IMG/VR virus record: IMGVR_UViG_3300021602_000006
Location: 1-64,000 of that record
Source: a virus
Direction: 5' to 3' (one strand)
Length of the DNA stretch: 64,000 bases
Position numbers and translations under genes: made by a program. This document shows, in pieces, positions 17,150 through 53,050 of this stretch (positions within the stretch are counted from its first letter, which is position 1; each line of letters starts with the position of its first letter). A model generated the notes under the pieces. That model was given only the letters and a program-made list of their open reading frames with translations. It searched no databases and was not told where the DNA came from.

Positions 17150-17426
17150 TGTTATCAAGTGTCGCATAGACGAAGACTTTCTAATAGAAGACCTAAGGCG
17201 AATACCTCAGCAAATACTATGTGATTGGTGTAGAGAAGAATTAGGTACAGATTCAATGCTGTCTGCTCCAACATGGATACACGAGCATATGAAGTTGACT
17301 GCTCACTATTATAATGGTGGAATGTTTCAAGCACACTATAGAAGAAGATACTTAGACTCATTAAGAAAGAGAATAAGAGAGTATGAAGAACCGTTGAAAC
17401 AAATGGACGAAGAAGGAATAGATTGA
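17133..17426 (+). CDS. MTIFDT-family small protein (copy 4)
   Basis: 97 aa from the first of two ATGs. TIFDVIKCRIDEDFLIEDLRRIPQQILCDWCREEL, later RRRYLDSLRKRIREYEEPL. Third of three tandem copies; the fourth is at 2429. Function unknown. Confidence 0.72.
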   Translation: MMTIFDVIKCRIDEDFLIEDLRRIPQQILCDWCREELGTDSMLSAPTWIHEHMKLTAHYYNGGMFQAHYRRRYLDSLRKRIREYEEPLKQMDEEGID

Positions 17427-18759
17427 CACTCAAGTAAGCATAAAAGCTGGGATAAGTCAGGGGTAGCAATAGAGAAAGATAGGGGAAGGTAGGGGACGTT
17501 AGAGCACTGTAAGGGCAGGTAAAAGTGGGCATAGAAGTGTATGCAAGGGCAGGTAGATGTGATGAAGTGCAATAAAGTGCAAAGATGTGCAATTTTATCA
17601 ACGTATATGGTTTGATTGAATTCGAGCTCGCCTCTCTCGGTAGATTTCAAGGTCAGATTTGGTCTTTAAGGTAGGAATTCTAGGTAGGAATCCTAGGCGA
17701 CATTTCTAGATAGGGTTTTGGGCGCAGATTCGCACGCGGATTTCGCATTCGCGCTCGATAGATGTGTGCGTGTATGCATTTCTACCTATCTCATTGGCTA
17801 TCATTGCTTAAGGTAGATACTCTATCTATCGCTATGCACACAAGGTTGCCATAATGCGATGTTGCCAGGTAGATACCCTATACACATACCTCTACCTATA
17901 CACATACGTCTATTTGAACACCTTCTGATACTCTATCGATACTCTATCTTACCATACAGCTACCGTAAACACTGTATCACCTGCACCATCATGAAGGCAT
18001 AGCAACTGGCATCAGGTAGATACTCTATCGATACTCTACTACACTGTGATGCTCTATATGATAAATAACATTGTAGTAAATTAGATAGATACTCTATTCT
18101 TAAAGTCGCTTACGAGCATTGGCCAGCAGTTAGAAGTTCTATCACATATCTATTACATTTCGCAAACGGGTATAACAGCGAATAATAAATGATAAACCAG
18201 TAGGTATTGAGTCCTATAGTTAGTTGCGGATATCGAATAATGCAGAATAGTCGATATTGATTTACACATTATGCCTGCACGCGCCTACTGCTTCGGCATG
18301 CGATGGACATAGTTAATTTAAAGGGCATCAAGGCCCTATCGCCATTTGTGAAATCCTATCTATACTATGCCTACAGTTTATACTATGTCCGCAGAGAATT
18401 TCTATCTATCTGATACTCTATAGATACTCTTTGATAGGGTATCATTATGAAATCCTTTTCAATATAGAAACTCGAATGCCGAAACTCTATCGAAAGGTGA
18501 AATGGGTATCGAGGGTTTCGAATTTCGATAGAAAGGGTTTCGATAGGGTTAGTTGGTGCTTACTTACCGAAGAGTTTCAGTCTCGGTAGCAGGTTGACCC
18601 AGTAAGCTTAAAGTTACCGAGGCTGCGGCCCAGTGTTAATACCTCGCTAACTGTTTTTCCCAGTGCTCGTAGATGTTACCGAGGCCTGCAAATGTCTCGG
18701 TAGACCAGAGCTCATTGCCTGCAGATTGTATAGCGAGGTATGCCTGCATCTCTACCTTG
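17427..18759 (+). other. 1.3-kb non-coding tract, candidate replication origin
   Basis: No gene is supported. It holds a G-rich start (AGGGGTAGC..GATAGGGGAAGG), the dispersed CAAGGTCAGATTTGG sequence (17,649), about ten GATACTCTATC-type 11-mers (17,816-18,443), several GTTTCGA strings (18,500-18,560), and CTCGGTA/ACCGAGG/AGCGAGG motifs (18,570-18,735). Iteron-like repeats in long AT-rich non-coding DNA suggest an origin or partition-like site. Transcription enters again at 18,760. Confidence 0.6.
17816..18443 (+). repeat. iteron-like 11-mers GATACTCTATC
   Basis: Direct copies or near copies start at 17816, 17872 (CCC variant), 17927, 17938, 18019, 18030, 18048 (variant), 18088, 18412 and 18423; an inverted GATAGGGTATC ends at 18443. 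Two pairs (17927/17938 and 18019/18030, also 18412/18423) are spaced exactly 11 bp, one helical turn. Confidence 0.85.
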
Positions 18760-24660: not shown

Positions 24661-24939
24661 ATGTTCGCAAACACTTTACAAGTTCGTGCAGTTGTCCACA
24701 GTTTAGGCCTTTCACGCCGCAAGACGTGGACAGACAAAGCTAAAGACGGCAGCAAGCTCGTTGCTTTCGAAATCGTGGAAGACGGCGATGTTGCTGTTGC
24801 ACAAGTCCAGAAGGAATTCAAGAAGCTGGGCTACACCAACCGCGTCACTACTACCATAAGCCCTGAAGGCTTACGCTACGGCGGTATTACCTACCTGCGT
24901 ATCAAAGCGGCTCCCCGCCCTTTCAATCGTTTTCGTTGA
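24661..24939 (+). CDS. hypothetical basic protein
   Basis: 92 aa. TLQVRAVVHSLGLSRRKTW, DKAKDGSKLVAFEIV, KKLGYTNRVTTT and RIKAAPRPFNRFR. Possibly a distant paralogue of 21641-21919. Strongly basic C-terminus. Confidence 0.72.
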   Translation: MFANTLQVRAVVHSLGLSRRKTWTDKAKDGSKLVAFEIVEDGDVAVAQVQKEFKKLGYTNRVTTTISPEGLRYGGITYLRIKAAPRPFNRFR

Positions 24940-24964
24940 CATTACCTTAACAAGGTAGTATAAT
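24936..24964 (+). promoter_or_regulatory. early promoter with spacer hairpin
   Basis: TTGACA-17-TATAAT; TACCTT-AAC-AAGGTA, 6 bp; the -35 overlaps the end of 24661-24939. Confidence 0.9.
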
Positions 24965-24981
24965 ACTATTTTAGGAAAAAT

Positions 24982-25191
24982 ATGCAAAACTTTATTCTTG
25001 TCATCGGCGGTGTACTACTCTTCGGAGCTGTCATCTGTGCAGCTGGCTTACTGTTCTCCATCCCTGTGTGGGCGCTGTGGAATGGTTGCTTGGTTGGTGC
25101 TGTAGCAGGTGTGTCTGAGATTACTTGGCTGCAGGCCTGGGGTATCTTGATCTTGTCTGGCTTCCTGTTCAAGTCGTCTACAAGTAAATAA
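24982..25191 (+). CDS. small two-span membrane protein
   Basis: 69 aa. First span FILVIGGVLLFGAVICAAGLLF, second about WLQAWGILILSGFLF, between them PVWALWNGCLVGAVAGVSEITWLQAWG. Matches, by memory, a common phage inner-membrane microprotein family with 'P-x-W-x-L-W-N ... I-T-x-L-Q-A'. Role unknown. Confidence 0.8.
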   Translation: MQNFILVIGGVLLFGAVICAAGLLFSIPVWALWNGCLVGAVAGVSEITWLQAWGILILSGFLFKSSTSK

Positions 25192-25193
25192 GG

Positions 25194-25222
25194 TAGACAG
25201 GGCATTAATGTCCTGTTATACT
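25194..25222 (+). promoter_or_regulatory. promoter giving a leaderless mRNA, with spacer hairpin
   Basis: TAGACA-17-TATACT; 8-bp stem ACAGGGCA/TGTCCTGT (one GU) around TTAA. The ATG begins five bases after the -10. Confidence 0.85.
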
Positions 25223-29695: not shown

Positions 29696-30821
29696 ACTGC
29701 ACACTCTCGTAAATCAGGCTTATAGTCCAGGCTAACAACCGAGATTGACCTTTGTGTCTAATCTCCGTGCCTAAAACCTGCAGACAAATCCCCGAACCAG
29801 ATTCGCCTTTGTGCGTGCTTTATACACGCGAGTTATGTGCGCGAGTATATACATACACATACGCGCATAAGCATAGTAATCCCTGATGCCTAAGATGTTT
29901 GTTCTCGGTAAAGGATCTGAACCGGCCTCAAGACGGAGAACGAGACATCGTCTGACTAAGTCTAAAGTCTGTCGTCGTTTCCCTTAACCTTTGACATTTT
30001 AGCCTAACATCGCGTTCTTTGTCTTGAACCGGTTCAGAAGTCAGCATCGAGACATCGACTTTGCTAGTCGATCTCTAAAGGATCATAGTAACATCTCGCT
30101 TTATAGCTAAGATGAACCATAGATTCTATCTTACGTTTAGCGAGACTTTAGTTGATTCTTTAAAGATCAATGGCCTTAAATTGTGTATGTCTCGGCAACG
30201 TTGCACGCAATAACCTGTGTTGTACAGACACTACCGAGGCACGTTCCAAGCGTTAGTCAAGGGACTGGCTGCTCACGCATTTATAACGAAATTATAAGGT
30301 AAGACGCAGGTCTTGTCAACGATTTTTGTCATTAACATCTATGTAGTCTCGCTATCTTAGGTATAGGCCTTGTAGGTTAAACTCTAAACAGCGAGACTTA
30401 CTGTTAAAGACTCTAAGGTCCTGTGATTCGCCGGCGATCCTTAGATGATTCAGACTAATATCTCGCTCAGACTTCTTATGGTATCTTATGGTGGAGAACG
30501 CGAACTTACACAACTCTGATCAACTAACAGACTAACTTGATTCAAAGATTATAGACTAATAGTCATTATACTGGGCCGATAGGGAAGTAAGCACTAACAC
30601 ACTTAAGAGTTAGTTGGTGCCTACTTACCTGTCTCGCTCTCCAAAAAAGGTTCTTCCTGAGAAGTCGTAACTAGCAAGCGAGGTTGGTAGATAGGGCTAT
30701 CTCGCTCTCCAAAAAAGGTTCTTCCTGAGAAGTCTAACCTGCAAGCGAGGTTGCCCTAACGTCTCGCCCTCTAAGCACGCCCCTAACACTGCCACACACG
30801 GTTATAAAGATGTAACAGTGC
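29696..30821 (+). other. 1.1-kb non-coding tract with repeats
   Basis: No gene is supported. It contains eight or more CTCGCT/AGCGAG motifs, two 35-bp direct repeats (30632 and 30700, period 68), a 21-bp sequence shared with 18548-18568 (one mismatch), and alternating CGCGCA/ACACAT strings at 29,825-29,865. It may hold an origin, packaging or structural-protein site. A promoter begins at 30,822. Confidence 0.6.
30632..30734 (+). repeat. 35-bp direct repeat x2 (period 68)
   Basis: TCTCGCTCTCCAAAAAAGG and the following 16 bases are identical at 30632-30666 and 30700-30734. Each copy is followed by GCAAGCGAGGTT, so CTCGCT and AGCGAG bracket a 44-46 base potential hairpin in both. Confidence 0.9.
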
Positions 30822-30850
30822 TTGCGTTTGCTTTCATTTTGCGTTATAAT
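30822..30850 (+). promoter_or_regulatory. TTGCGT-class promoter
   Basis: TTGCGT-17-TATAAT preceded by TGTAACAGTGC; leader AACTGCATAGCAACAAAGG. Confidence 0.8.
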
Positions 30851-30875: not shown

Positions 30876-31043
30876 ATGCTTAACGTCATTGCAAACTACG
30901 CTCAAAAACACAATACTGTTACATTGCTGCGTACAATAGAGCACATGGGCAACAGCTTTGAGGATCTCACTGCACAAGAGCAACTTGCATATGAGAACTT
31001 GTACGACGAGATGATGCAGTTTGTGCAGCAGCAAAATAGCTAA
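30876..31043 (+). CDS. small helical protein
   Basis: 55 aa, MLNVIANYAQKHNTVTLLRTIEHMGNSFEDLTAQEQLAYENLYDEMMQFV. Probably one or two helices. AAAGGA upstream. Not recognised. First gene of the compositionally unusual block. Confidence 0.7.
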   Translation: MLNVIANYAQKHNTVTLLRTIEHMGNSFEDLTAQEQLAYENLYDEMMQFVQQQNS

Positions 31044-31051
31044 AATAAAGC

Positions 31052-31080
31052 TTGCGCTTTGTTTCACTTTGCAGTATAAT
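31052..31080 (+). promoter_or_regulatory. TTGCGC-class promoter
   Basis: TTGCGC-17-TATAAT; leader AATTGCATAGCAACAAACAAAGCG. Confidence 0.8.
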
Positions 31081-31110
31081 AATTGCATAGCAACAAACAA
31101 AGCGCACAAA

Positions 31111-31401
31111 ATGCAAAACGCAAACACACTGTACTACAGCGTTAGTATGCAAAGCAACAAGCAAGCACTTTTTATAGTGTTTAGCTTTGCACAGCCCAAA
31201 CTTACCGTGTCGCAGCGCACAGCGCACGCAGTTATTACTTGCGACAAAAAGCTTACAACTGCAAAGCTTGCACAAATTGTTGCCGAGCAAGCAAAGTTTG
31301 ACAAAGCTTATTGCACACGAGAGTGCAACAGCACAAGCATTGCAAAACTGTTGCGTAAAAACGACAACCCTGTCGCGCAGCAAGTTAACTACTATTGCTA
31401 A
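31111..31401 (+). CDS. hypothetical protein of biased composition
   Basis: 96 aa, MQNANTLYYSVSMQSNKQALFIVFSFAQP.... It has no Gly and no Trp, and its DNA contains no GG. AAGCG lies upstream, so the ribosome site is weak. Not recognised; codon use differs sharply from genes before 30 kb. Confidence 0.65.
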   Translation: MQNANTLYYSVSMQSNKQALFIVFSFAQPKLTVSQRTAHAVITCDKKLTTAKLAQIVAEQAKFDKAYCTRECNSTSIAKLLRKNDNPVAQQVNYYC

Positions 31402-31440
31402 AAGCCGCCCGATATAAATGCAAGCATTAGCAAATAGTGC

Positions 31441-31469
31441 TTGCATTTAGTTTCATTTTGCGTTATAAT
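31441..31469 (+). promoter_or_regulatory. TTGCAT-class promoter
   Basis: TTGCAT-17-TATAAT; leader AACTGCATAGCAGCAAAAAGG. Confidence 0.8.
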
Positions 31470-31496
31470 AACTGCATAGCAGCAAAAAGGAATTGT

Positions 31497-31652
31497 ATGG
31501 ATCGTCAAGTTTATGTAATTTATTACAAGTATAAGGGCCGTACGCATACAAGCATTACGCGCCCATGTACGCTTGCAGAAGCAACAGCAGCATTCCACGA
31601 GGAACTAAACAGCTTAAATACATTTAAGTTGTTACGCATTGTTGCAAAATAA
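31497..31652 (+). CDS. small basic protein
   Basis: 51 aa, MDRQVYVIYYKYKGRTHTSITRPCTLAEATAAFHEELNSLNTFKLLRIVAK. Strand-strand-helix-strand. AAAAGGAA upstream. From memory similar phage microproteins exist; function unknown. Confidence 0.68.
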   Translation: MDRQVYVIYYKYKGRTHTSITRPCTLAEATAAFHEELNSLNTFKLLRIVAK

Positions 31653-32850: not shown

Positions 32851-33135
32851 CCGCCCTATCTAGTCTAAGGTTCCTAGGTTGGTCACCGAGACCAATCTCC
32901 GCACAGAAAACAGGTAGATAAAAGTTAAAGATGGATTTGGAATTATAGGCGGAAATCCTAGGCGGAAATCCTAAATAGGCGACAGAATTGAGAACCTATC
33001 GCGTTCTCCTCCTTGAGATGCTAAGATTGGTAGGTGCCAGACATTACTAAGGAAGGTAAGCACCACGTTCTCCTCCTTGAGATGCTAAGATTGGTAGGTG
33101 GTAGGCATTGCATATGTAAATAGATGTAACAGTGC
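32851..33135 (+). other. non-coding tract with 35-bp direct repeats
   Basis: No gene is supported. GGCGGAAATCCTA occurs twice at 32948-32971, and a 35-bp sequence (CGTTCTCCTCCTTGAG plus 19 bases) is exact at 33002-33036 and 33066-33100 (period 64). Confidence 0.7.
33002..33100 (+). repeat. 35-bp direct repeat x2 (period 64)
   Basis: Exact copies at 33002-33036 and 33066-33100. They contain CTCCTCCTT, the reverse of a strong ribosome site. Comparable in size and spacing to the repeat pair at 30632/30700. Confidence 0.9.
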
Positions 33136-33164
33136 TTGCTTGAAATGTTTTGTTGCAGTATAAT
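33136..33164 (+). promoter_or_regulatory. TTGCTT-class promoter
   Basis: TTGCTT-17-TATAAT preceded by TGTAACAGTGC; leader AAACACTTAGCAGCAAACAGGAG. Confidence 0.8.
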
Positions 33165-33193
33165 AAACACTTAGCAGCAAACAGGAGCAGCAA

Positions 33194-33382
33194 ATGGAAA
33201 ACGATGATTACATTGTACTGGATACAGCTGATGCTGGTGCGTACGAAGGCAATAGCTTGACAACGTACACAATACAGTGTAAAGCAACTGGCGAAGTACG
33301 CTTGCTGGAAGCTTGCATGACACTGGACATGGAAGTGTTTGATGCGGAGGATTTTGAACAGTGTGACACTGTTACAAAATAA
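33194..33382 (+). CDS. small acidic protein
   Basis: 62 aa, MENDDYIVLDTADAGAYEGNSLTTYTIQCKATGEVRLLEACMTLDMEVFDAEDFEQCDTV. Beta-rich and acidic. AGGAG upstream. Not recognised. Confidence 0.7.
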   Translation: MENDDYIVLDTADAGAYEGNSLTTYTIQCKATGEVRLLEACMTLDMEVFDAEDFEQCDTVTK

Positions 33383-33385
33383 AGC

Positions 33386-33414
33386 TTGCAATGAAATGCT
33401 TTGTGCAGTATAAT
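33386..33414 (+). promoter_or_regulatory. TTGCAA-class promoter
   Basis: TTGCAA-17-TATAAT; AAAGC/GCTTT dyad; leader AAACACTTAGCAACACAAAGG. Confidence 0.8.
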
Positions 33415-33442
33415 AAACACTTAGCAACACAAAGGAAGCATT

Positions 33443-33718
33443 ATGTTTAACGCAGCTTACAAAACAAACAGCGGGCTTACAGTGCAAGACGTTGACATGG
33501 GCGTGCAGTACAGTTACAACAAACACACGATGTTGTTTATTGGCGAGCAAGAGCAAGGCGACGTTGACGTTGACGACAAGCATTACGCTGATTATGTGTT
33601 TGACAGCGCACAAGACGCAATTGTGTTGTACGATAGCAACAATGTTGCATTTGCAACTATTGCTAACACAGATACAGCTTACGAAGCGTATGTGTTACAA
33701 CTGTTACAAAGTTTGTAG
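33443..33718 (+). CDS. hypothetical protein, YpC-depleted gene
   Basis: 91 aa, acidic and Tyr-rich: MGVQYSYNKHTMLFIGEQEQGDVDVDDKHYADYVFDSAQDAIVLYDSNN.... By eye the coding strand has no TC and no CC; every Ser codon is AGC or AGT. Contains a DSAQDAIVLYD segment reminiscent of DxxDAxxF motifs. Function unknown. Confidence 0.7.
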   Translation: MFNAAYKTNSGLTVQDVDMGVQYSYNKHTMLFIGEQEQGDVDVDDKHYADYVFDSAQDAIVLYDSNNVAFATIANTDTAYEAYVLQLLQSL

Positions 33719-34293
33719 CATTTAAACAACAGTGTGTACTTTGTTACACACTGTTGCAATTGTAACATTTTGTTACAATTGCTTTGTCGCGTTTGCAATT
33801 AAACCCACTGCGCCGGAAAAGCGAGATACATGCATTGCTTTGTCGCGTTTGCAATTTTGGCACGCACATATTTTACCCCCGAGGCTTGCCACGTTGCTAT
33901 GCAAAGTTGTGTTTAGCGTCTTCATGTATGCATTGTATTGCAGAACAACCCTACCTGTCAACTCAGTCGCGCTCGCTAAAATAATCCTACATATAGGTTT
34001 TTCTGCGTTAGCGAGATTATGTTTTTTGCTACTTTGTTTTTTTATAAAAAGCAATGTTTAGCGAGATTATGTTTTAGTTAGTAAAGTCTCGCTACTGCAT
34101 TTTTAATCTAAAATTAGCACTAACGCGATACAGCAAAAACTTAACCTCGCTACTGCATCTTTAATCTAAAATTAGCACTAACGCGATACAGCAAAAACTT
34201 AACCTCGCTAACACATACGCAACTAAACTTAGCACACACGATATATATTTGCATTGTTGCACAAATACAACACACGAAACATAAAAAATGCGC
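33719..34293 (+). other. non-coding tract with several repeat families
   Basis: No gene is supported. It carries a 22-bp direct repeat (33779-33800 and 33835-33856), GCGAGATTATGTTTT twice (34,012 and 34,061), a 58-bp tandem duplication (34088-34210) and a segment copied upstream of the 35219 gene. Inverted TGTGTACTTTGTTACACA strings occur at 33,731. Composition matches the Gly/Glu-free gene that follows. Confidence 0.65.
34088..34212 (+). repeat. 58-bp tandem repeat, two copies plus stub
   Basis: Copies start at 34088 and 34146 (one mismatch visible, CATTTTT/CATCTTT) and a third begins at 34204 with CTCGCTA. Each opens with CTCGCTACTGCAT and ends CAGCAAAAACTTAAC. Confidence 0.92.
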
Positions 34294-34299
34294 TATAAT
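34231..34299 (+). promoter_or_regulatory. promoter without -35, preceded by a duplicated element
   Basis: TATAAT at 34294-34299 with CACACG instead of a -35. GCACACACGATATAT...TTGTTGCACAAATACAACACAC (34231-34277) recurs before the 35219 gene, suggesting a shared activator site. Confidence 0.6.
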
Positions 34300-34318
34300 A
34301 CAAGCACTGCACAACATT

Positions 34319-34963
34319 ATGCAGCAACTAGTAAAGCAAAAGTACACTATGCAAAAACAACTTACATTAGCGCAAGCGCAAGCTGCAACACTGTTGCACG
34401 CAAACAACAACACCCTAACTGTTGCACAAGTGCAGCAGCTACTTGCTAACGCGAGCGTTACGTTTGCACAAATACTGTATGTAACAGCAGTCCAAACAGC
34501 AGCCGCGCACAAAGCACAAAACATACAAAAAGTAACTAGCGCGAACGTAATACTTTGCAGCAACATTAACGCCCATACAAGCGTATATGCTAACAAAGTA
34601 AAGCGCAGCGCGGCGAAGTACAGCAACAATAATGCAGCAGCAATAGCAGCGTTTACAGCGCAGCAAAACTACTTTGTACATACCGCAGTGTACAGCATTG
34701 TGCAACACGCACAGCACAGCGACAAGTTTTATTTGTATGCAATATACAACAACGCAAACAGCGTGTATATGCACAATAATGCTATTGTAAGCAAACAACA
34801 CATTGCACAATACCTTACTGCAAGCGCAGCTAAAGCACTGTTGCAGCCTAGCGACACTGTACACAATGTTACACATAACATAACGCACAACGTCGCAGTA
34901 CGCACTATTGCATTAAGCAACATAGTAAGCGTGACAGCACGTAAGCAGCTACTAACTAAGTAG
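34319..34963 (+). CDS. Ala/Asn/Gln-rich protein with no Gly, Glu or Trp
   Basis: 214 aa with zero Gly, Glu and Trp, two Asp, one Pro and three Arg; rich in Ala, Asn, Gln, Thr, Val, His and Tyr. GG, GA and TC dinucleotides are nearly absent from the gene. Helical N-half (QKQLTLAQAQAATLLHANNNTLTVAQVQQLLANASVTFAQILYV) could be two helix-hairpins; the rest has no known motif. The ATG is only about 13 bases past the expected start point and has no ribosome site; ATG at 34349 is an alternative. Might be structural or a low-complexity nucleoid-like protein; unknown. Confidence 0.65.
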   Translation: MQQLVKQKYTMQKQLTLAQAQAATLLHANNNTLTVAQVQQLLANASVTFAQILYVTAVQTAAAHKAQNIQKVTSANVILCSNINAHTSVYANKVKRSAAKYSNNNAAAIAAFTAQQNYFVHTAVYSIVQHAQHSDKFYLYAIYNNANSVYMHNNAIVSKQHIAQYLTASAAKALLQPSDTVHNVTHNITHNVAVRTIALSNIVSVTARKQLLTK

Positions 34964-35118
34964 TGTAGCGTACACGCAACACTGTGCTAGTGTACAGTGT
35001 TGCGCTATAGCAACAAGCAGCGCAGCACACAGTAGCCGCGCTATGCAGTATTGGGTTTGCTATGCAGCGGGCGAGGCTGCATAACACGCATTGTCTCGCC
35101 CGCCCATGGCAGCGCACA

Positions 35119-35191
35119 TTTTTGCACACACGATATATTTTTGCTTTGTTGCACAAATACAACACACAGCGCAAAGTATTTGCAGTATAAT
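35119..35191 (+). promoter_or_regulatory. promoter without -35, with the duplicated element
   Basis: TATAAT at 35186-35191; CACACA at the -35 position. Bases 35119-35167 repeat the element at 34231-34277. Leader AAACACTTAGCAACAAAAAGG. Confidence 0.62.
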
Positions 35192-35218
35192 AAACACTTA
35201 GCAACAAAAAGGGGTTTT

Positions 35219-35413
35219 ATGCTTAACGCAATGCAACAACAACGCGCATGTATGCGTAATGCAATACAGCAGCTCGCGCATTACAACTGTGCAAGTGTTA
35301 TGTGGGATAACGTGGAACGCATAGCGCGTGAGTGTGGGCTTGCACACACTAGCGGCCGCGTTAGCGACGACTTGCAAGAGGAACTAGTCAACGAGGCATT
35401 AAAGCAAAAGTAA
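35219..35413 (+). CDS. hypothetical protein
   Basis: 64 aa, MLNAMQQQRACMRNAIQQLAHYNCASVMWDNVERIARECGLAHTSGRVSDDLQEELVNEALKQK. All helical. AAGGGG upstream. Last gene of the early-type region. Confidence 0.7.
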   Translation: MLNAMQQQRACMRNAIQQLAHYNCASVMWDNVERIARECGLAHTSGRVSDDLQEELVNEALKQK

Positions 35414-35863
35414 CAACGTGTAACTGTTGTAGCAGCTAATGTAAACTGTTACAACATTAACAAAGTAAAGTCTCGTTATATTTGCGCGGTCAGCACTATA
35501 AATGCGCGAGACTGTTGTTTTTTTACAACAGCGGCATGCCGCGGGACCATTTTTCTATCTAATCTCTATAGGTCCCGATTTTTCTATCTAATCTCTATAG
35601 GTCCGATTTTTCTATCTAATCTCTATAGGTCCCGATTTTACTATCTATCTGACTATAGTGATGGGTTCTACTATCTAATCTCTATAGGACCCGGGTTCTG
35701 CTACCTATCTAACCATGACCCCAGATTCTAAACTTTGGTCGGTCTATTTTTCCATACCTTAGAAAATTTTTACAGAAATTTTTCTATGATGCAAAGGTAG
35801 GCCCTACCTACACTACTATATGAACTCTTGAACTACTCAGCTGAAGAGTGTATACTGTACTGC
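35414..35863 (+). other. non-coding tract with 29-bp tandem repeats
   Basis: No gene is supported up to about 35,828. TGTAACTGTTG/TAACAACAC-like palindromes lie just after 35,413, then the tandem array (35550-35690) and AT-rich DNA (35,750-35,820). No promoter for the following array was recognised. Confidence 0.65.
35550..35692 (+). repeat. 28/29-bp tandem repeat
   Basis: CTATCTAATCTCTATAGG starts at 35555, 35584, 35612 and 35671, separated by TCCCGATTTTT-type spacers; a degenerate copy lies at 35641. The core carries CTATAG palindromes. Confidence 0.9.
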
Positions 35864-44020: not shown

Positions 44021-44738
44021 TATATTCCTCTAAATCTTCGGGAGTTCCCACGCCATCCATGCTATCTACTGTAGAAATAGATATTTTCTGACCTGCCGAT
44101 ATATTTTCATTATATGTCGGGCATAGATAGAATTCGTTATTTACTCTGATATTCTTTAATATCATAGATTTAGCAGCAGATACAAAGTCTTCCCCTCGTT
44201 TCCAAATATACATTCCGGCAGTTGCGTTGTCTGATATCGGATCTTTTTCGGCAACATCTGTAACATAGCCGTTATTTCCTATACGTGCAAAACTCCACTT
44301 GGGGTCAGTATCTTTGAAACATAATATAAGACCATCTGCATCGCTATTCATAAATTTATCAAATACAATATTTGATTTCCATCCTATTATATTATCTGAA
44401 TTAATGACAATAAGAGGGTTGCTATTGTCGATATGAGATTCAGCAAGAAGGACTGAACATGCCGCACCTTCTGTGACTCCGCCCCCAGTATCAATAATTG
44501 TACACCCAGGACATATTGCGTTTAATATCTCGTCCAGATTATAGTCTTCCCTGTGTGTTTTTTGCACAATAAAGACCCATTTTCCGTCGATGCCCACGCT
44601 CTTTATTACGTGCTCTATCATGGGTTTCCCGAAGATAGGAATCAGTGGTTTTATGTTGATATAACCTGCATTACTAAATCTTGTCCCCATCCCCGCCATC
44701 GGTACTACTATTATTGGTGTTAATTTTGATGATGACAT
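44001..44738 (-). CDS. sugar-1-phosphate nucleotidyltransferase
   Basis: 245 aa. GT-A-type nucleotidyltransferase signature PMAGMGTRFSNAGY..KPLIPIFGKPMIEHVI, metal/ sugar region VINSDNI, and VGTPEDLEEY near the end (the usual G-T-P-E-D end). It would make an NDP-activated sugar or alcohol. Overlap of 65 bases with the HAD gene; the pair probably supplies an activated sugar to the nearby glycosyltransferases. Confidence 0.85.
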   Translation of the reverse strand: MSSSKLTPIIVVPMAGMGTRFSNAGYINIKPLIPIFGKPMIEHVIKSVGIDGKWVFIVQKTHREDYNLDEILNAICPGCTIIDTGGGVTEGAACSVLLAESHIDNSNPLIVINSDNIIGWKSNIVFDKFMNSDADGLILCFKDTDPKWSFARIGNNGYVTDVAEKDPISDNATAGMYIWKRGEDFVSAAKSMILKNIRVNNEFYLCPTYNENISAGQKISISTVDSMDGVGTPEDLEEYIRHHKF

Positions 44739-45333
44739 CTTGAATATTCCTTAGTGTAACATCGGACATATCGTTAACAGGAAATAGATATGCACCCGAT
44801 GCTATAGCTGCATATTTACCTGAACAAGAGTCTTCTAATATTAGTGTTTCGGAGGGAGTTACATTTTCCCTACTCATAACAGTAAGAAATATTTCAGGAT
44901 CCGGCTTGTGATTTATTACATCGCTGTTTGAAAGAATATTTGAAAAATAGGAAGTTATACCGAGTATACTTAACAAAAGTGTTACATTTTCTTGTCTGGA
45001 GTTGCTTGCTATAGCAAGTTTGTAGTCATTTTTTAGCGTACGAAATATATTATCCTGATCGGGAAGTGTTTTAAGTGGTTGATAGAAATGCTCGATCACA
45101 TTTTTTTGCTTACTGTCGTCGATCAGAGATAATTGTAGATCAGTTAATCCGAAGTTCTGTTTTAATATACTTAGTTTATGTTTAGTTGTTTTTCCGCCCC
45201 GGTCTATAAGATGAACAAACATATCTTCGTCCATACCTGTTATAGATGATACTGCACGAATAAGACACTCTCGGTGAATACATTCGGTATCGACGAGTAC
45301 GCCGTCGAGGTCAAATATTATTAGTTTTATCAT
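44674..45333 (-). CDS. HAD-family phosphatase / phosphoglucomutase-like
   Basis: 219 aa. Motif I FDLDGVLVDT (Asp8, Asp10), motif II ASNS, motif III Lys in HKPDPEIF, motif IV LEDSCSG. The cap after residue 16 and DLDGVLVDTE start match the beta-phosphoglucomutase-like subgroup. Probably a sugar-phosphate phosphatase or mutase in the pathway of the adjacent nucleotidyltransferase. Confidence 0.85.
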   Translation of the reverse strand: MIKLIIFDLDGVLVDTECIHRECLIRAVSSITGMDEDMFVHLIDRGGKTTKHKLSILKQNFGLTDLQLSLIDDSKQKNVIEHFYQPLKTLPDQDNIFRTLKNDYKLAIASNSRQENVTLLLSILGITSYFSNILSNSDVINHKPDPEIFLTVMSRENVTPSETLILEDSCSGKYAAIASGAYLFPVNDMSDVTLRNIQDVIIKINTNNSSTDGGDGDKI

Positions 45334-46142
45334 ATGTATTTGTTAAAATATCCGCAATCCCATTTAGTATTAGCATTACTAATAACTTCTGCAGGCCATA
45401 TGCTGCCGTCATCGAGCCATTTGGTACCTATTAGATCGATCTCATATAGTAATCTTAAATCGCGCCAGTCGTGGTAAATATTGTGCACCTCACTAAACGT
45501 GTGGTCAGATGTCGCCCAATATCTGCAGAATGTTAAATTATCAAACTCAGAGGAGTTAATTATATTTGGAAAGAGATTATATACAAATTTGTACCACCAT
45601 ATATGCCAATCATATTCCTTATCGGTTAACCATATATCTATATTTAGCGAATCAAATAATTTAGACATATTATTATATGATGAAATAAAAAGTATATCCC
45701 CTAATTTATTAATATGTAGCGACGTTGCCCATGCAAAACCTATACCATTATCATATTTTTCTAAAGATTTTAAGTCAGGTGGTGATATAAATTGAAAAAA
45801 TAAATCAGTCCTCAAAACCAATACATAATTGTACTCGATACCGCTATTTTTAATCATTTCAAATCCAGTCAGCCACCGATCGATCATTTTGCAGTTATAC
45901 TTCGTTTCTTTTATATAATTGTGATTATCGATCCTTATATTTGCATATTTTCCTAAGTCTTTTAAGATAATTTCTTTATTAACATCGTGTTCTTGTAAAA
46001 AATTAATTTTATTATTAGAGTATACAGTCTTGTCCCATGTACAAATATAAATGTCGGCATCCGAATTGTCTAGAAACGTCATTGTTTTTCTTGTTATATC
46101 AAATTTTCTATATTCTCCCGATATTAAGATTGCGATTTTCAT
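45330..46142 (-). CDS. glycosyltransferase-like protein
   Basis: 270 aa from the ATG at 46142 (a TTG 24 bases earlier is less likely). MKIAILISGEYRKF start, YVLVLRTDLFF (D-x-D-like region about residue 112) and FCRYWATSDHTF. Similar to unnamed phage/bacterial GT-like proteins. Acceptor unknown. ATGA overlap with the methyltransferase upstream. Confidence 0.6.
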   Translation of the reverse strand: MKIAILISGEYRKFDITRKTMTFLDNSDADIYICTWDKTVYSNNKINFLQEHDVNKEIILKDLGKYANIRIDNHNYIKETKYNCKMIDRWLTGFEMIKNSGIEYNYVLVLRTDLFFQFISPPDLKSLEKYDNGIGFAWATSLHINKLGDILFISSYNNMSKLFDSLNIDIWLTDKEYDWHIWWYKFVYNLFPNIINSSEFDNLTFCRYWATSDHTFSEVHNIYHDWRDLRLLYEIDLIGTKWLDDGSIWPAEVISNANTKWDCGYFNKYI

Positions 46143-46723
46143 CAGAGTGTAAAACTCCAGACACAACTATTTTTGTGCAGTGTCACCGATTTCCCAATCA
46201 TAATACTTAGCCGATCTATATTTATATTTACATCGGGGTAATGTATGGTATTACTATTCTCGGCAGTATAATAATCGTGCCCGCATATTATTCCGCCGTG
46301 CTTAATCTTAGGTAACCAATACATTATTGTTTGCCAATCGGTTGGATTTGTATGTGCAGCATCGATGAAGAATAGATCTATGTCGTGGCCCTCCCAGCGA
46401 TAATCTAAGTTATTGTCGACTATATTTGGCACAATATTTTGGTATACCTTAGTAAATAATTTGAAAGTATCGAGTGTGTTTGATCTGATAATATTATCTG
46501 ACGCTTTTATATCGTTTCCCGGCCAGTAATCGTAACAATATATTGTTGCATCGGGTGCCGCTGACGCCATACAACATGCCGATTTACCGTGCATAGAACC
46601 CACCTCAACGATAATACCGCCTGCATGAACTAAACTGGCTATGGTCGAAATTGCATCCTGGTCCCCTGTGCCGAGCCATCCAGGAACCAAATTATTATAT
46701 ATCTTATTCTCTTGTGTCTGCAT
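46142..46723 (-). CDS. class I SAM-dependent methyltransferase
   Basis: 193 aa. Motif I IIVEVGSMHGKSA (38-49), acidic loop YCYDYWPG, motif IV DLFFIDAAH (116-124), and GGIICGHDYY. Matches the Methyltransf_24-type family seen in sugar or capsule methylation clusters. Adjacent radical SAM and GT genes support a role in glycan decoration. Confidence 0.82.
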   Translation of the reverse strand: MQTQENKIYNNLVPGWLGTGDQDAISTIASLVHAGGIIVEVGSMHGKSACCMASAAPDATIYCYDYWPGNDIKASDNIIRSNTLDTFKLFTKVYQNIVPNIVDNNLDYRWEGHDIDLFFIDAAHTNPTDWQTIMYWLPKIKHGGIICGHDYYTAENSNTIHYPDVNINIDRLSIMIGKSVTLHKNSCVWSFTL

Positions 46724-48121
46724 TTAAATTGTCCCTTTTATCGACTTATAGAACTCTTCTAGGCCAGCGAATGTTTTCAAAAAATTTGTGTTACGACGAC
46801 TGTCGTGTTCATCGACAAATTTAATAAAGTCTTGGCGGTATTTATTTACTTCTGCGTTCTCTGTATTACTATATATTAAATCTCTGATGCGTTTCATCTT
46901 TTCTGCTTCGAACTTCCCAAATCCGTAATTTATACCGTTTTCGTATTCTTGATTTTTATTTATAAACTCGAGTTGATCGTCGAGATGATGGAAAAATTCG
47001 GTCGGCATAATAAATATGCTCTGATGAGGGGGATATCGTAGATAAGGGATATCGAGCAATAAACGTGTTTGTGCGGTAAGCCATGCACTCTTAGACGGGA
47101 AGGCCTTCTTTATTTCGTATATGTCTTTAAGAAAATCTTTATACCCCACCACACTAAGAGCATTGTACGTACTCATTACTGTGATATTAAGTCCCGGGAT
47201 CTCCTCTAACAACCTATATATATTTCTTAACCAAAGCGCATAATCCATTCCAAAACGAATATATTCTGCCTGCTTGCCTGCGGCTTCTGCACTAGTAAAT
47301 ATTTTTAATTGCTTTACTTTTCCTTCGTTTATGATGATTTTAATTTTTTCTATAAATGCGTCAAGCAATGCAGCAGGTGGACAAAGATTAGAATTGATAC
47401 TAAGATCCAATACTGGGTTCGGATTTTCAATAATATAGTCTAGTACTCTGAATGTATTCTTGCTTAACAAAGGTTCCCCACCGGTTATTCTGAAATGCTC
47501 TAACGAGTTGTACATCCTGGGCCACCATTCCCAGAATGCATCCACGTAAGGATTTTCATCTCTGCTCGGGATAGGAATCATGTTTTGTGAACGCGGCCAA
47601 TCCAGGTTATTAAATCGGCCGCTAGTCGGGTACGCCCCGTATTTTTCTAATTCATCTAACCATTGACTACTAGCATGTGGACCACAATAACTACATTTGA
47701 AATTACATACATTACTGAAGCTTACTTCGACATAGCTAGGATCTACGTTATCATCCCATGATTTAGATGTTATGTCCTTAATATGAGGTAATGCCCAACT
47801 ATCCGAACTTTTTACAGTCCTGTCACTGATATTTCCCTGATCTTCTACTCTCCAGCAATAATCACATTCTGGAGGTCGAATACCGCTCAACATTAACTTT
47901 CGCTGTTGTTTTTTATACTCTGTATTATGTAAGGCAGTGGGGTTACGTTTAATTTCAGATAAGGGAATAAAATGTGTAGATGGGTGGTGGCAGCTATGTG
48001 TGTGGCCATTCTGAAGGTGCATTGTTACTTGCTTCCATTTTGCTACACAGAAACTAGGACTAACTTCGTTTATCTCTTCCCTTACATTTTCTAAATACTC
48101 TGTATATTTCTGGTTACTCAT
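46724..48121 (-). CDS. radical SAM enzyme
   Basis: 465 aa. C139-x3-C143-x2-C146 (NVCNFKCSYCGPH) binds the 4Fe-4S cluster; ITGGEPLL is the GGE motif. Additional Cys in the N-terminal part (C44, C86, C89 with PPECDYC) could hold a second cluster. Related 'twitch' radical SAM proteins are known from T4-like phages, substrate unknown. Located between two methyltransferase-like genes. Confidence 0.88.
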   Translation of the reverse strand: MSNQKYTEYLENVREEINEVSPSFCVAKWKQVTMHLQNGHTHSCHHPSTHFIPLSEIKRNPTALHNTEYKKQQRKLMLSGIRPPECDYCWRVEDQGNISDRTVKSSDSWALPHIKDITSKSWDDNVDPSYVEVSFSNVCNFKCSYCGPHASSQWLDELEKYGAYPTSGRFNNLDWPRSQNMIPIPSRDENPYVDAFWEWWPRMYNSLEHFRITGGEPLLSKNTFRVLDYIIENPNPVLDLSINSNLCPPAALLDAFIEKIKIIINEGKVKQLKIFTSAEAAGKQAEYIRFGMDYALWLRNIYRLLEEIPGLNITVMSTYNALSVVGYKDFLKDIYEIKKAFPSKSAWLTAQTRLLLDIPYLRYPPHQSIFIMPTEFFHHLDDQLEFINKNQEYENGINYGFGKFEAEKMKRIRDLIYSNTENAEVNKYRQDFIKFVDEHDSRRNTNFLKTFAGLEEFYKSIKGTI

Positions 48122-48714
48122 ATCTTTCCTATCACCATATATCTTGTATACATGGGCATTATTAATTTGCCTGAATATAATATATTCGTAAGGCCTGTTT
48201 GTTCTATAAACTCTTCCTCGCTATGAACACAATTAATGTGCCCATTTCCACTATCATAATTATTTGATTGTAAAATTAATAATTTATTTTCAGGGATTAA
48301 TGATATCCATCCACAAATGTCTGCAATATGCTCGCAGCTTGTATTAACTATAATATCTTCATTATAATCATATTTATACATGTCCGCTGTTATGCATCTT
48401 ATGTCCTGCATGTTATAAATCATGTTATTAATAAATCTTTCACAACGTGGATCTATATCTAACATATTCACTTTAACGCCAGGAAATTGAGCGTGTATTA
48501 ACATTCCTAAGGTGCCATACCAAGCACCTGCTATAAGAAATGTTTTATCTTCGCATAGAGGGTATAAATCAATAAGCTTTTCTATCACCCACTCTTTACT
48601 GCGAATTTGCCCAAGACTAAACATATCACGAAATTCGTCATACCTGGGTGCAAATTCGGCAGGTGTTGAATATAAAGCATTAGTATACCTTATAATAAAA
48701 TTGGAATCTATCAC
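48118..48714 (-). CDS. SAM-methyltransferase-like protein, GTG start
   Basis: 198 aa from GTG. Motif-I-like FLIAGAWYGTLGMLIHAQFPGVKVNMLDIDPRCERFI (about 55-92) and NTSCEHIADICGWISLI. The strand order fits a Rossmann methyltransferase with an unusual G-A-W-Y-G loop. GTGA overlap with the upstream gene. Confidence 0.7.
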   Translation of the reverse strand: MIDSNFIIRYTNALYSTPAEFAPRYDEFRDMFSLGQIRSKEWVIEKLIDLYPLCEDKTFLIAGAWYGTLGMLIHAQFPGVKVNMLDIDPRCERFINNMIYNMQDIRCITADMYKYDYNEDIIVNTSCEHIADICGWISLIPENKLLILQSNNYDSGNGHINCVHSEEEFIEQTGLTNILYSGKLIMPMYTRYMVIGKI

Positions 48715-49712
48715 TTATTTGTTTTCCTAAGTTCCGAAAGCTCTGACTCAGTAAACATTTTATTCATGCGCGGTGTATTGTATTGTGCTGCTTTATAGAA
48801 CTTACTCTGTATTTCGTCAAGCTCAGCTAATTCCATACCTAACCCTTTTCTGAGTTCGTCGCCCAAACTTTCTATCGCTGCCCATAGGCGTGTCTTATCC
48901 CACCTGTAGTCGGTTTTATAGCATCTTTCAAAATCGTTAGATAATGTATCTGCTTCAAACTTCGGCATAATTTCGCCGGAAAAGAAATTATTTAACCAAT
49001 CGAAGTCTCTTACATTCAAATAGTCCCAGTCAGTCAAGTTAGTCATTTGGCAACCCAATCTTGTACCATACATCGACCATAAACCGTTTTCAACATCTGC
49101 ACCAACGCTGCACCAAGTGATCAATCGTTTATAATTTCCAATCCATATTATTTTCTTAAAATTGTCGGCCTCTATCTTTCCGCCCTGATTCAATCCCATC
49201 TTAACGCCTTCTCTGAATCCTGCACGGAATGCTTGGCGTGGACTACCGTTAGGGTAAGTAATGCTGTATTGGTTAATCATTTGTACATAGCTATCTTCCC
49301 AGCAGAAATCTACCTGATTTCTTTCGTCATCGCTATATGCATTTTCGTGTGTATGCATATCTAATACATATTGTTTTGGCCAGCATTTTAGCCCGCCATT
49401 ACCGTATTCCAGCCCGTTTATAACATTCTTAGCTGTCCAGCTAACTGCTTTATCTTTTAGTTTCGGATGTTCGAAATCTAATTCCATATCAAAGAAGTCC
49501 GGGTCTACGATGTTATCACCGTCAACAGAGATAAATCTGTCAGTATCTGATAAATTTGCTGCTGCTTTATGGGCAGCGTCGGAACCTTTTACTCCATGAA
49601 CTCTTTTAGCCCACGGCACTTTGTTTTGTAAATCCGCCCAATTCTCTTCACAATTCTCTTCGTCGTAGCTAATAAAAATAGTATCTAACGAATTCATTAA
49701 TGTAAATGCCAT
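48711..49712 (-). CDS. glycosyltransferase-like protein
   Basis: 333 aa. TIFISYDEENCEENWADLQNKVPWAKRVHGVKGSDAAHKAAANLSDTDRFISVDGDNIVDPDFF: a GT-A fold with the VDGDN (D-x-D) metal site at about residue 63. Similar to T4-like phage glycosyltransferases by memory. Possibly modifies host surface, DNA or virion protein. Confidence 0.72.
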   Translation of the reverse strand: MAFTLMNSLDTIFISYDEENCEENWADLQNKVPWAKRVHGVKGSDAAHKAAANLSDTDRFISVDGDNIVDPDFFDMELDFEHPKLKDKAVSWTAKNVINGLEYGNGGLKCWPKQYVLDMHTHENAYSDDERNQVDFCWEDSYVQMINQYSITYPNGSPRQAFRAGFREGVKMGLNQGGKIEADNFKKIIWIGNYKRLITWCSVGADVENGLWSMYGTRLGCQMTNLTDWDYLNVRDFDWLNNFFSGEIMPKFEADTLSNDFERCYKTDYRWDKTRLWAAIESLGDELRKGLGMELAELDEIQSKFYKAAQYNTPRMNKMFTESELSELRKTNK

Positions 49713-50329
49713 TACTCTGCCTTTTCTTTATATTCATAACCGCCTACTAATTTTTTAGTATATGCGCTCACATTAGTGTAGCTGCCAGTATAGTTAAAAT
49801 ACAACCTTTCAGTATCGAATAATGCCCTGGGTGCCAAAACAAACGAAAATAATAAATGATAAGGGTTATTTCGTTTAGTTATATAAACTGTAGACGGTCC
49901 TTTATTTAAAAAATCAGAAACACGTTCCTGTTCTTCTTCTGTTCCGTTTTTATACATATCTTTAATATCTGTGGATAACCGTACACTAAAAACTTTATTT
50001 TCTGTGTTATTTGTGATAATAATTCCACTAAAATATTGTTCTTTTGTATCGGTGGTTTCTACTTTGGTAAGATATGAATCTAAAGATCTGGTATAATTGA
50101 TGGTAACTAGTTTCTTTAGCAGAACATATGTTATACCGGACGATTTTTCTACTTTCTTTACTTTGTAGTCAAATGTATTGCTTACACCCGTCAAAAATTT
50201 CTCCACCAAAGGGAGAGGGAATGTAGCTACCGAAAAGTGCGCCGAAAAATTTTCATCCAGCGCAGGTGTTATAGCTTTTATGTCGCCGTTTACATCATAG
50301 AAAACATACATTAAAATTAAGGATGCCAT
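49712..50329 (-). CDS. hypothetical protein, perhaps virion-linked
   Basis: 205 aa, beta-rich: LILMYVFYDVNGDIKAITPALDENF, SYLTKVETTDTKEQYFSGIIITNN, FSVRLSTDIKDMY. Not recognised. Between two glycosyltransferase-like genes; overlaps each end (13 and 1 bases). Confidence 0.6.
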   Translation of the reverse strand: MASLILMYVFYDVNGDIKAITPALDENFSAHFSVATFPLPLVEKFLTGVSNTFDYKVKKVEKSSGITYVLLKKLVTINYTRSLDSYLTKVETTDTKEQYFSGIIITNNTENKVFSVRLSTDIKDMYKNGTEEEQERVSDFLNKGPSTVYITKRNNPYHLLFSFVLAPRALFDTERLYFNYTGSYTNVSAYTKKLVGGYEYKEKAE

Positions 50330-51174
50330 ATATTAACCCTCTTTTCTAAAATAGCAATCATATCGTCAGTTAACCAATCTTTTGTATTATAATGGAACGG
50401 AAGCGTCTGCTCGTAGTTACCTATCTTAAATGTTCCTTCATCCGTAAAATAGGTAGGGATACATTTTGTCCAATCATCGGTTAAATATTTCTCGTTTATA
50501 TTCTGCAAATGTGATTTCATATGAACAAAGGACGGCATTGACGATGCATTTCCGAAACATTCCTTTTCTATTCCCAATAACTTAATAGCCAATGCATAAG
50601 CTACATCGCCCGATAATACTTTTGGGCGAGTTTCGTCTAAATAGTTGTAGTAGAATCTTTCCCAATTTTCAAATATTAGTTCTACCATTTTAAATAATTC
50701 TGCTGTTAAGGTAGTTTTCTTAAAATACATAAATGCAGTGTATACATTAGGTAATTCGTTGGCAACAAAAGTTTCTCTATATTTTGTAGATGTAATCACT
50801 TCTCCGCGGAATGTTCTCGGTTTATCTGTGATCCAGATATCTTTATGCGACATTATATCCCACCAATCAGTTATATCAGCCGGAAAAAGCATATCTGCAT
50901 CTAACACGACAGTTTCGTCGAACGGAGTCATGTGGTAATATTTCCACTTATTGTTTATCTTCCATTTAGAATACAATGCTTGGTCGGTCCACGGTATATC
51001 CACTATGTGATCAAATACATCAGCATACTTATCAGGAACACTGTCTGTAGTTGCTAAAGCAACCTGGTGCACACCGGCTTGTGTATTTTTAATACTTAGT
51101 GCTAAGGCATAAGCAAGCCTGACATAGTCGTCCTTCTTAGTATTCTGTGCTAAAATTAAATATCCACGAGTCAT
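50317..51174 (-). CDS. glycosyltransferase-like protein (GT8-like, copy A)
   Basis: 285 aa. TRGYLILAQNTKKDDYVRLAYALALSIKNTQ, FDETVVLDADMLFPAD (D-x-D, about residue 92) and VYTAFMYFKKT. The N-terminus and metal site match the paralogue at 51794-52675 (SRGVLMVAHNNTEIDYFKIACANALMV, FIDCDYL). Transfers an unknown sugar. Confidence 0.75.
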   Translation of the reverse strand: MTRGYLILAQNTKKDDYVRLAYALALSIKNTQAGVHQVALATTDSVPDKYADVFDHIVDIPWTDQALYSKWKINNKWKYYHMTPFDETVVLDADMLFPADITDWWDIMSHKDIWITDKPRTFRGEVITSTKYRETFVANELPNVYTAFMYFKKTTLTAELFKMVELIFENWERFYYNYLDETRPKVLSGDVAYALAIKLLGIEKECFGNASSMPSFVHMKSHLQNINEKYLTDDWTKCIPTYFTDEGTFKIGNYEQTLPFHYNTKDWLTDDMIAILEKRVNIWHP

Positions 51175-51797
51175 ACTTGTTCCTTTTTTAATCTATTATA
51201 GAATGTTTGATAAAGAATATTATGGGCTTTTGCAGCAGATTTAATCGATACGTATTCTTTTCCGTCGTATGTGATAGGTATGGTATTTTTTGGCAGTTTG
51301 CCAAACATAACATTCTTATCCCCTAGTTGTCTTGCTGTCATATATTCTTTACTTTTCTTCGAGTATATTCTTTTGCTGGGCTGCGATTTTCCAATTTTCA
51401 ATTTAGTATCTTCTGATTGTTTTGTGCCGAATAGCGGACTTTTATCACCTGTCCGATTAGCGGAAAATATTAACCGTTGCTCATCCGTCCATACCCGTCC
51501 TGTGCCGCCTTCACCGCCGTTGGTTAAATTTAACAAAGGCCCTAGTTTTAAATCTTTTCTGCCAAGTTTTGCTATTAGTTCCTCTTCTAAGAATAATGCA
51601 AATTCTCTGTCCAACTCCGTATAAATTCCTATATTAGGTTTAATATTATTCTTTTTCATAAATTGCAATCGCTGAATGAACGGGCTCTTTCGTTTAGCTC
51701 TCAAATGATCCCAGGCCCTGTTCTTTTGACCCATACCAACATATATGGGTTCGTTGTTTCTCGATGGATCATAATAAATATAAGTGTAGAAATTCAT
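51171..51797 (-). CDS. GIY-YIG homing endonuclease
   Basis: 208 aa. N-terminal GIY-YIG variant YTYIYYDPSRNNEPIYVGMG with catalytic Arg in NRAWDHLR, Glu in LEEELIAKLG and LTNGGEGG; then NUMOD3 SPLFGTKQSEDTKLKIGKS and a C-terminal helix-turn-helix (YVSIKSAAKAHNILYQTFYNRLKK). Placed seamlessly between two glycosyltransferase genes by ATGA overlaps at both ends. Confidence 0.88.
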   Translation of the reverse strand: MNFYTYIYYDPSRNNEPIYVGMGQKNRAWDHLRAKRKSPFIQRLQFMKKNNIKPNIGIYTELDREFALFLEEELIAKLGRKDLKLGPLLNLTNGGEGGTGRVWTDEQRLIFSANRTGDKSPLFGTKQSEDTKLKIGKSQPSKRIYSKKSKEYMTARQLGDKNVMFGKLPKNTIPITYDGKEYVSIKSAAKAHNILYQTFYNRLKKEQV

Positions 51798-52675: not shown

Positions 52676-53031
52676 TCATTATCCTTTATGTCTAGTACAG
52701 ACTTTACGTTTCTTAATTTTCTGATAGACTGATATTCTTTTAAGTAATCATTAGTTACTTCGAAATATCTTTTTGTTATTTCTTTTAAGAATCCTGCTAT
52801 ATCAGCGATATGTACCGGCGAATTATCTTTATCGAGAATATTTGTTTCTGTCAACCCAGTTCTAATTAAATAATCCAGGAAACAAATCAGTTCTTGATTT
52901 ATTACAAAATTGCCACCGTTTTTAGCAAACAGAAGAAGACCTTCTGCTCTGATTTTTACTTTATGTAATTGATTGTTAAGTGTTTGTCTGTAGTTAACAA
53001 ACTCGAGTGCTTTTTCTAATCTTTCTTCCAT
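52672..53031 (-). CDS. hypothetical helical protein
   Basis: 119 aa: EERLEKALEFVNYRQTLNNQLHKVKIRAEGLLLFAKNGGNFVINQELICFL. From memory small phage proteins of this kind occur near tail genes, sometimes as chaperone-like factors. AACGGAGG upstream and a GATAAATA motif make it a late gene. Confidence 0.65.
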   Translation of the reverse strand: MEERLEKALEFVNYRQTLNNQLHKVKIRAEGLLLFAKNGGNFVINQELICFLDYLIRTGLTETNILDKDNSPVHIADIAGFLKEITKRYFEVTNDYLKEYQSIRKLRNVKSVLDIKDNE

Positions 53032-53050
53032 GCAAAACCTCCGTTTACAC

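What the first reader, a model, noticed from the sequence alone, without database searches (positions are those of the whole stretch)
34319..34963. 214-codon gene without Gly, Glu or Trp and with almost no GG, GA or TC
The protein has no G, E or W. In the DNA, G is nearly always followed by C or T. On both strands this equals depletion of YpC/GpR, the footprint expected if cytosines after T or C were deaminated, or if selection removes a family of sites. The neighbours 31111-31401 and 33443-33718 show weaker versions (the latter lacks TC and CC on the coding strand only).
Basis: partly seen in the sequence, partly recalled or inferred. Interest (0 to 1): 0.85.

Follow-up and report, generated by a model that had tools for sequence, protein, structure and literature searches.

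The report
Phage genes purged of two dinucleotides
A cluster of small genes in a giant-phage lineage has been kept by selection almost entirely free of four two-letter DNA words (GG, GA, TC and CC), sometimes on both strands and sometimes only on the strand that matches the RNA, which suggests these genes must stay readable when some unknown agent marks, blocks or cuts those words elsewhere in the virus.

Summary
The gene (true start probably 34349) has 18 GG/GA/TC/CC steps where 53±6 are expected for its own protein. Two islands of the window (about 30.85-31.5 and 33.1-35.45 kb), including non-coding DNA, are depleted; nothing else is. Fifteen distinct relatives were found on IMG/VR giant-phage contigs. 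Several, as little as 59% identical to each other in DNA, have none of the four steps; one has no depletion at all. Two classes exist. Class A units lack the steps on both strands. Class B genes lack only TC/CC on the coding strand, whichever DNA strand that is. Promoters of both classes have -35 TTGC/TTGT instead of TTGA (0 of 17 TTGR, against 152 of 182 for ordinary genes). Lost YC sites became mostly C-to-purine or upstream Y-to-purine changes, seldom C-to-T, so this is selection, not deamination. I favour, at modest confidence, a DNA-level agent that marks G before a purine, with the islands as units host RNA polymerase can still read. Related phages carry guanine-modification genes (FolE, QueD, QueE), but no transferase was found and no modification is shown. 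RNA-level rivals (YC-specific RNase, Rho) remain open. I know of no precedent.

The parts
34349..34963 (+). Main gene, 204 codons, class A (both strands depleted); product very basic, no G, E or W. Family of unknown function
   Evidence: YC 11, GR 7 against about 37 and 18 expected for the 34319 form; orthologues 56-74% identical; dN/dS well below 1
34294..34299 (+). TATAAT, probable -10 box of the main gene; no clear -35 at 16-18 bp
   Evidence: read from sequence
34026..35300 (.). Class A island, coding and non-coding, GG/GA/TC/CC-poor on both strands
   Evidence: 300-base windows with both odds below 0.35
33076..33875 (.). Class B stretch: TC/CC nearly absent on + strand, GG/GA normal to moderately low
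33194..33382 (+). Class B gene, acidic 62-aa product, YC 0, GR 27
33443..33718 (+). Class B gene, acidic 91-aa product, YC 0, GR 21
33136..33164 (+). Promoter-like site TTGCTT-17-TATAAT before 33194
33386..33414 (+). Promoter-like site TTGCAA-17-TATAAT before 33443
30951..31500 (.). First class A island
31111..31401 (+). Class A gene, 96 aa; similar protein in G002 849-1130, also depleted on both strands (similarity read by eye)
31052..31080 (+). Promoter-like site TTGCGC-17-TATAAT before 31111
30876..31043 (+). Gene with low sense YC (4) and normal GR (13), promoter-like site TTGCGT-17-TATAAT at 30822-30850
35219..35413 (+). Weak class B gene (YC 3 of 7.4 expected, GR 16 of 20.9)

Best explanation
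SHOWN: purifying selection keeps a small set of promoter-gene-terminator units in this giant-phage lineage free of GpR/YpC steps. The coding strand is always purged of YC. In class A units GR is purged too. The -35 box is TTGY instead of TTGA in both classes. INFERRED: the selective agent acts on DNA and concerns guanine followed by a purine. The likeliest form is a sequence-specific guanine modification of the packaged genome (of the 7-deazaguanine kind) that spoils the -35 sequence TTGACA and hinders host RNA polymerase when it lies in the template strand; on the non-template strand it is tolerated better. Island units contain no modifiable G where it matters, so unaltered host polymerase can read them from incoming, fully modified DNA. 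The other genes would be read later, from fresh unmodified copies or by altered polymerase.
For: Both-strand zeros, exactly reverse-complementary steps, in several diverged relatives. Selection, not mutation. Untranscribed -35 boxes avoid GA: TTGA 2/51 against 253/465; upstream of genes, TTGR 0/10 class A and 0/7 class B against 152/182 ordinary genes. Class B follows the gene's own strand, also for a minus-strand gene in G001 and the minus-strand genes of G024, as template-strand damage would. In G019 two class B units have normal YC in the -35/-10 spacer but almost none after the start of transcription. An isolated class A unit in G026 is clean from about 80 bases before the start to its terminator. 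FolE, QueD and/or QueE occur in PA5oct, G018, G008, G009, G010. A phage modification at GA and GGC, both GpR, is known: CAjan (PMC10002423).
Against: No modification is shown. No TGT/DpdA-type transferase and no confident QueC was found. G008 has FolE, QueD and QueE but no island, and CAjan, truly modified at GA/GGC, has no comparable island (first 50 kb). Most promoters of these phages, TTGACA type, are not depleted, so the model needs them to be silent or slow at first, which is untested. 7-deazaguanines are not known to me to block RNA polymerase. Different strictness of class A and B within one genome is not explained. Strict contigs are fragments lacking the region that holds these genes in PA5oct.
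Confidence: 0.35

Rival explanations
1. RNA-level evasion of a ribonuclease that cuts at U|C or C|C. Island messages lack the site and survive when others are cut, as ACA-less messages survive MazF. The enzyme could be a host abortive-infection toxin or the phage's own shut-off nuclease.
For: Sense YC is the constraint common to both classes; avoidable YC obs/exp in class B is 0-0.22 in every genome, while GR is often unconstrained. 5' untranslated regions of class B: YC 0 of 63 expected. In G019 the constraint begins with the transcribed region. Single-site strictness fits cutting.
Against: Does not explain loss of GR in class A unless a second enzyme has exactly the complementary specificity, nor loss of GA from untranscribed -35 boxes. 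Untranslated leaders are copied cassettes, so they are not independent evidence. Residual YC is not hidden in stems.
Confidence: 0.22
2. Evasion of Rho-dependent termination. Rho's primary sites bind YC dimers (my knowledge, not tested here), so YC-free RNA cannot load Rho.
For: Exact match of YC and of the strand rule. Class A messages lack Shine-Dalgarno sequences and may be poorly translated (inference from sequence).
Against: Rho needs many YC over tens of bases; near-absolute loss, also in class B genes with Shine-Dalgarno sequences, is more than it needs. Loss of GR is the opposite of what would help (G-rich RNA resists Rho). The promoter effect is unexplained.
Confidence: 0.13
3. Avoidance of a double-strand nuclease or nicking enzyme of host defence with a very short target, in the DNA that must be expressed first.
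For: Symmetric loss on both strands in class A, including non-coding DNA.
Against: One cut anywhere would kill the phage, so purging a few kb of a roughly 300-kb genome should not help; class B keeps GR freely. A strand-specific nick that only matters in the template would rescue the idea.
Confidence: 0.1
4. Cytosine deamination footprint.
For: The words lost equal the YpC preference of APOBEC-like enzymes; class B is on the non-template strand.
Against: C-to-T is a minority of the differences (11 of 79); C content is not reduced; CC most often became CA rather than CT; no candidate enzyme.
Confidence: 0.02
5. Two promoter/gene classes with an unrelated compositional habit, for example a different holoenzyme preferring TTGC and selection on codon use or structure that happens to remove YC.
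For: Promoter cassettes are copied between units of a phage; island units share leaders with hairpins.
Against: Loss is frame-independent and reaches exact zero in diverged relatives; both TTGC and TTGT occur.
Confidence: 0.08

Closest known systems
Restriction-site avoidance in phage genomes
   Same: Selection removes short words from coding and non-coding phage DNA.
   Different: Known cases (from memory) remove 4-6 bp sites genome-wide; here two-base steps vanish from a few kb only, with a one-strand version tied to gene orientation.
preQ0 / 7-deazaguanine DNA modification of phage CAjan and relatives (FolE, QueD, QueE, QueC, DpdA)
   Same: Modified motifs GA and GGC are GpR (PMC10002423). 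Relatives of this phage encode FolE, QueD and QueE.
   Different: No DpdA or confident QueC found here; CAjan shows no purged islands; no modification shown in this lineage.
ACA-less messages surviving MazF (single-protein production; from memory)
   Same: A message free of an RNase site is the only one left standing.
   Different: Engineered, one RNA site; here natural, and untranscribed -35 boxes are changed as well.
Pseudomonas phage PA5oct and relatives (Arenbergviridae, Wroclawvirus)
   Same: Many collinear proteins, mostly at 30-60% identity.
   Different: PA5oct has only weak, mostly non-coding tracts of this kind, and deposited phages gave no tblastn match to the main gene product.

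Membership tests
7-deazaguanine-modified phages (Dpd type) | preQ0 synthesis genes FolE, QueD, QueE | tested here: inconclusive
   Present in PA5oct; FolE and QueE in G018, G008, G009 (QueE also in G010); QueD in PA5oct and G008. QueD not found in the window's 70-kb record or other strict contigs, which are fragments not covering that region
7-deazaguanine-modified phages (Dpd type) | DpdA/TGT-like base-exchange enzyme | tested here: not met
   PF01702 no hit in G000-G007 or PA5oct; CAjan DpdA gave no phmmer hit among ORFs of 17 sequences including G008 and G018. A distant DpdA could be missed
7-deazaguanine-modified phages (Dpd type) | QueC | tested here: inconclusive
   Only below-cut-off matches in G018 and G008
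7-deazaguanine-modified phages (Dpd type) | Modified G in DNA | not testable with these tools
   Needs native DNA
APOBEC-like deamination target | YC replaced by YT (GR by AR) | tested here: not met
   11 of 79 YC sites
APOBEC-like deamination target | Lowered C content | tested here: not met
   C 25% in gene, 20% in window
Restriction-site avoidance | Genome-wide depletion of the word | tested here: not met
   Other genes near obs/exp 1 in every genome tested
Rho-evading transcripts | Sense RNA without YC | tested here: met
   Class B YC obs/exp 0.12
Rho-evading transcripts | No constraint on GR or on untranscribed DNA | tested here: not met
   Class A lacks GR; -35 boxes changed
RNase-site-free messages (MazF-like) | Avoidance confined to the transcript | tested here: inconclusive
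   Yes for spacer YC in two G019 units; no for -35 GA
Arenbergviridae (PA5oct relatives) | Collinear structural and replication proteins | tested here: met
   formal family membership not tested by phylogeny

The most novel reading that the evidence does not exclude
The phage uses guanine modification at GpR as an epigenetic timer. Packaged DNA is modified, so host polymerase can read only units whose -35 box and template are free of modifiable G; these units are kept free of GpR/YpC by selection and form an 'unmodifiable' immediate-early programme, and all other genes open only on new unmodified DNA.
Probability: 0.25. Interest if true: 0.92.

Novelty: categorically new. Interest (0 to 1): 0.85.

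Why it matters
Complete loss of two of the ten distinct DNA steps from whole transcription units, with a one-strand version that follows gene direction, is an unusually clean signature of an unseen agent in phage-host conflict. It gives a sequence-only readout of where and on which strand that agent acts, and points at genes a phage must express under it. If the agent is a base modification it would reveal a modification-gated gene-expression switch; if it is an RNase, a natural counterpart of engineered cleavage-proof messages. Either is testable with one isolate. 'Categorically new' refers to the pattern, not to a proven mechanism; the literature search was limited to an open-access library.

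Tried and rejected
Alternative genetic code for the left half: not supported. Residual YC hidden in RNA stems: no more paired than other C. General depletion at all sigma-70-like promoters: absent. Gene content separating strict from unconstrained phages: no candidate agent. Fold of the main gene product: model pLDDT 68, no PDB match; four remote viral matches of unknown function. Pfam/PHROG/tblastn for island proteins: nothing firm except a weak winged-helix match in G001. Bacterial genomes: no relative. CAjan as positive control for modification-driven islands: none. CRISPR PAM avoidance (CC, TTC) considered and rejected because the rest of the genome keeps the words and class B is strand-specific.

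Full report
Setting. The window is the first 64 kb of a 70,489-base virus record. Its large protein at 55845-63836 matches PA5oct-type giant Pseudomonas phages at about 37%, and G000-G007 share many collinear proteins with PA5oct. The left 37 kb holds many small genes read by the standard code.

The observation. The gene and its surroundings lack GG, GA, TC and CC far beyond chance, in all codon phases and beyond what its protein demands. Two islands exist, about 30.85-31.5 and 33.1-35.45 kb; the rest of the window is ordinary. Orthologues fix the start at 34349. I write GR for GG+GA and YC for TC+CC; each is the other's reverse complement.

Relatives. Iterated searches of IMG/VR gave 16 loci besides the window's own gene, in records G001-G007 and G018-G026; G005 and G006 are near-duplicates, so 15 are distinct. 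None was found among deposited phages or bacterial genomes. In G001, G002, G006 and G024 the gene has none of the four steps; G007, G021 and G022 have two or three; G000, G003, G004 and G019 have 8 to 18; G018, G020 and G023 are relaxed; G026 is nearly and G025 fully unconstrained. Among the strict G001, G002 and G006 the nucleotide identity is only 59-76%, and dN/dS in the family is clearly below 1. The protein is therefore real, and the purge has been kept while synonymous sites turned over. Its odd composition is a consequence: relaxed orthologues contain G, D, E and P.

Two classes. Conditioned on their proteins, class A genes have YC 0.17 and GR 0.30 of expectation (zero in the strictest), class B genes YC 0.12 but GR 0.87, and neighbouring genes 1.12 and 0.92. 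The classes were defined by these depletions, so the informative points are the zeros, the separation of YC from GR, and the strand rule. Class B follows the gene's own strand: on the minus strand in G001 10589-10831 and in G024. Avoidable GR in class B varies between phages, from 0.18 in G021 to about 1.3-1.4 in G002 and G003, whereas avoidable YC is 0-0.22 everywhere. Class A products are basic, class B mostly acidic. Outside the islands genes sit close to expectation.

Anatomy. Units consist of promoter, short leader often with a hairpin, gene, and terminator (read from sequence). Boundaries between units keep GR/YC-containing palindromes that differ between phages. In G021 about 8 kb holds roughly fifteen units. 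The -35 box is TTGY: upstream of genes, 0/10 class A and 0/7 class B have TTGR, against 152/182 ordinary genes of the same phages; a pattern scan gave TTGA 2/51 against 253/465. In class A this partly restates local GR loss, but class B is not otherwise strongly GR-depleted in its coding sequence. In G019, two class B promoters have normal YC in the spacer, while the transcribed part has almost none. In G026 an isolated class A unit is clean from about 80 bases upstream of the start to its terminator, between ordinary DNA.

Selection, not deamination. At sites where a relaxed orthologue has YC, the strict one shows C-to-purine 32, upstream Y-to-purine 15, C-to-T 11, other 21. These changes were counted on selected pairs, so the numbers are descriptive.

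Mechanism. The loss on both strands of complementary steps and the change in untranscribed -35 boxes point to DNA. The strand rule of class B points to transcription: template GR is worse than non-template GR. A mark on G before a purine explains both, and TTGACA contains its only G in that context. CAjan modifies GA and GGC (PMC10002423). Related phages have FolE, QueD and QueE, in G018 beside a phosphoribosyltransferase and an IMP dehydrogenase-like gene. But no transferase was found, G008 has the pathway without islands, and CAjan has no islands. An RNA-level cause (RNase or Rho acting on YC) explains the universal part, sense YC, equally well but not GR or the -35 change. I therefore hold the DNA model at 0.35.

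Limits. Hosts and expression are unknown; most strict contigs are fragments; the G019 evidence rests on two units; promoter cassettes within one phage are not independent; starts of transcription are inferred from -10 boxes.

Noticed in passing
window 30640-30770, 32890-33130, 35545-35720: Intergenic repeated blocks (for example TTTTTCTATCTAATCTCTATAGGTCC in near-tandem copies) that keep GR/YC words and border the islands.
   Followed up: no
window 34439-34888, minus strand: Long antisense open frame conserved in relatives; expected because loss of TC removes TCA, hence antisense TGA stops. Probably not a gene.
   Followed up: partly
L172 12506-12820 (G018 52506-52820); also G006 24856-25203, G004 17412-17762: A second class A family with a KRKYTKR motif accompanies the main gene; partly relaxed in G018.
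   Followed up: partly
L016 12362-12667 (G001): 101-aa protein without G, D or E that still resembles a winged-helix (MarR-like) regulator, weak E-values.
   Followed up: partly
L182 4246-8421 (G018 244-248 kb): Cluster FolE, phosphoribosyltransferase, IMPDH-like, HIT protein, QueE-like: looks like guanine-derivative metabolism.
   Followed up: partly
PA5oct NC_071039 about 267340-267560 (L014) and 239310-239460 (L013): Non-coding tracts nearly free of GR/YC; the first has duplicated promoter-like sequence directly before the tRNA cluster.
   Followed up: partly
L216 12000-15000 (G024 52000-55000), minus strand: TTGACACTAGCGC...GCGCTAGTGT elements in which a hairpin overlaps a promoter -35 box, repeated between several small genes.
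   Followed up: no
window 44674-52675: Minus-strand cluster with a HAD-like hydrolase, a radical SAM protein and several unknown proteins, some shared with G003 and G007.
   Followed up: no
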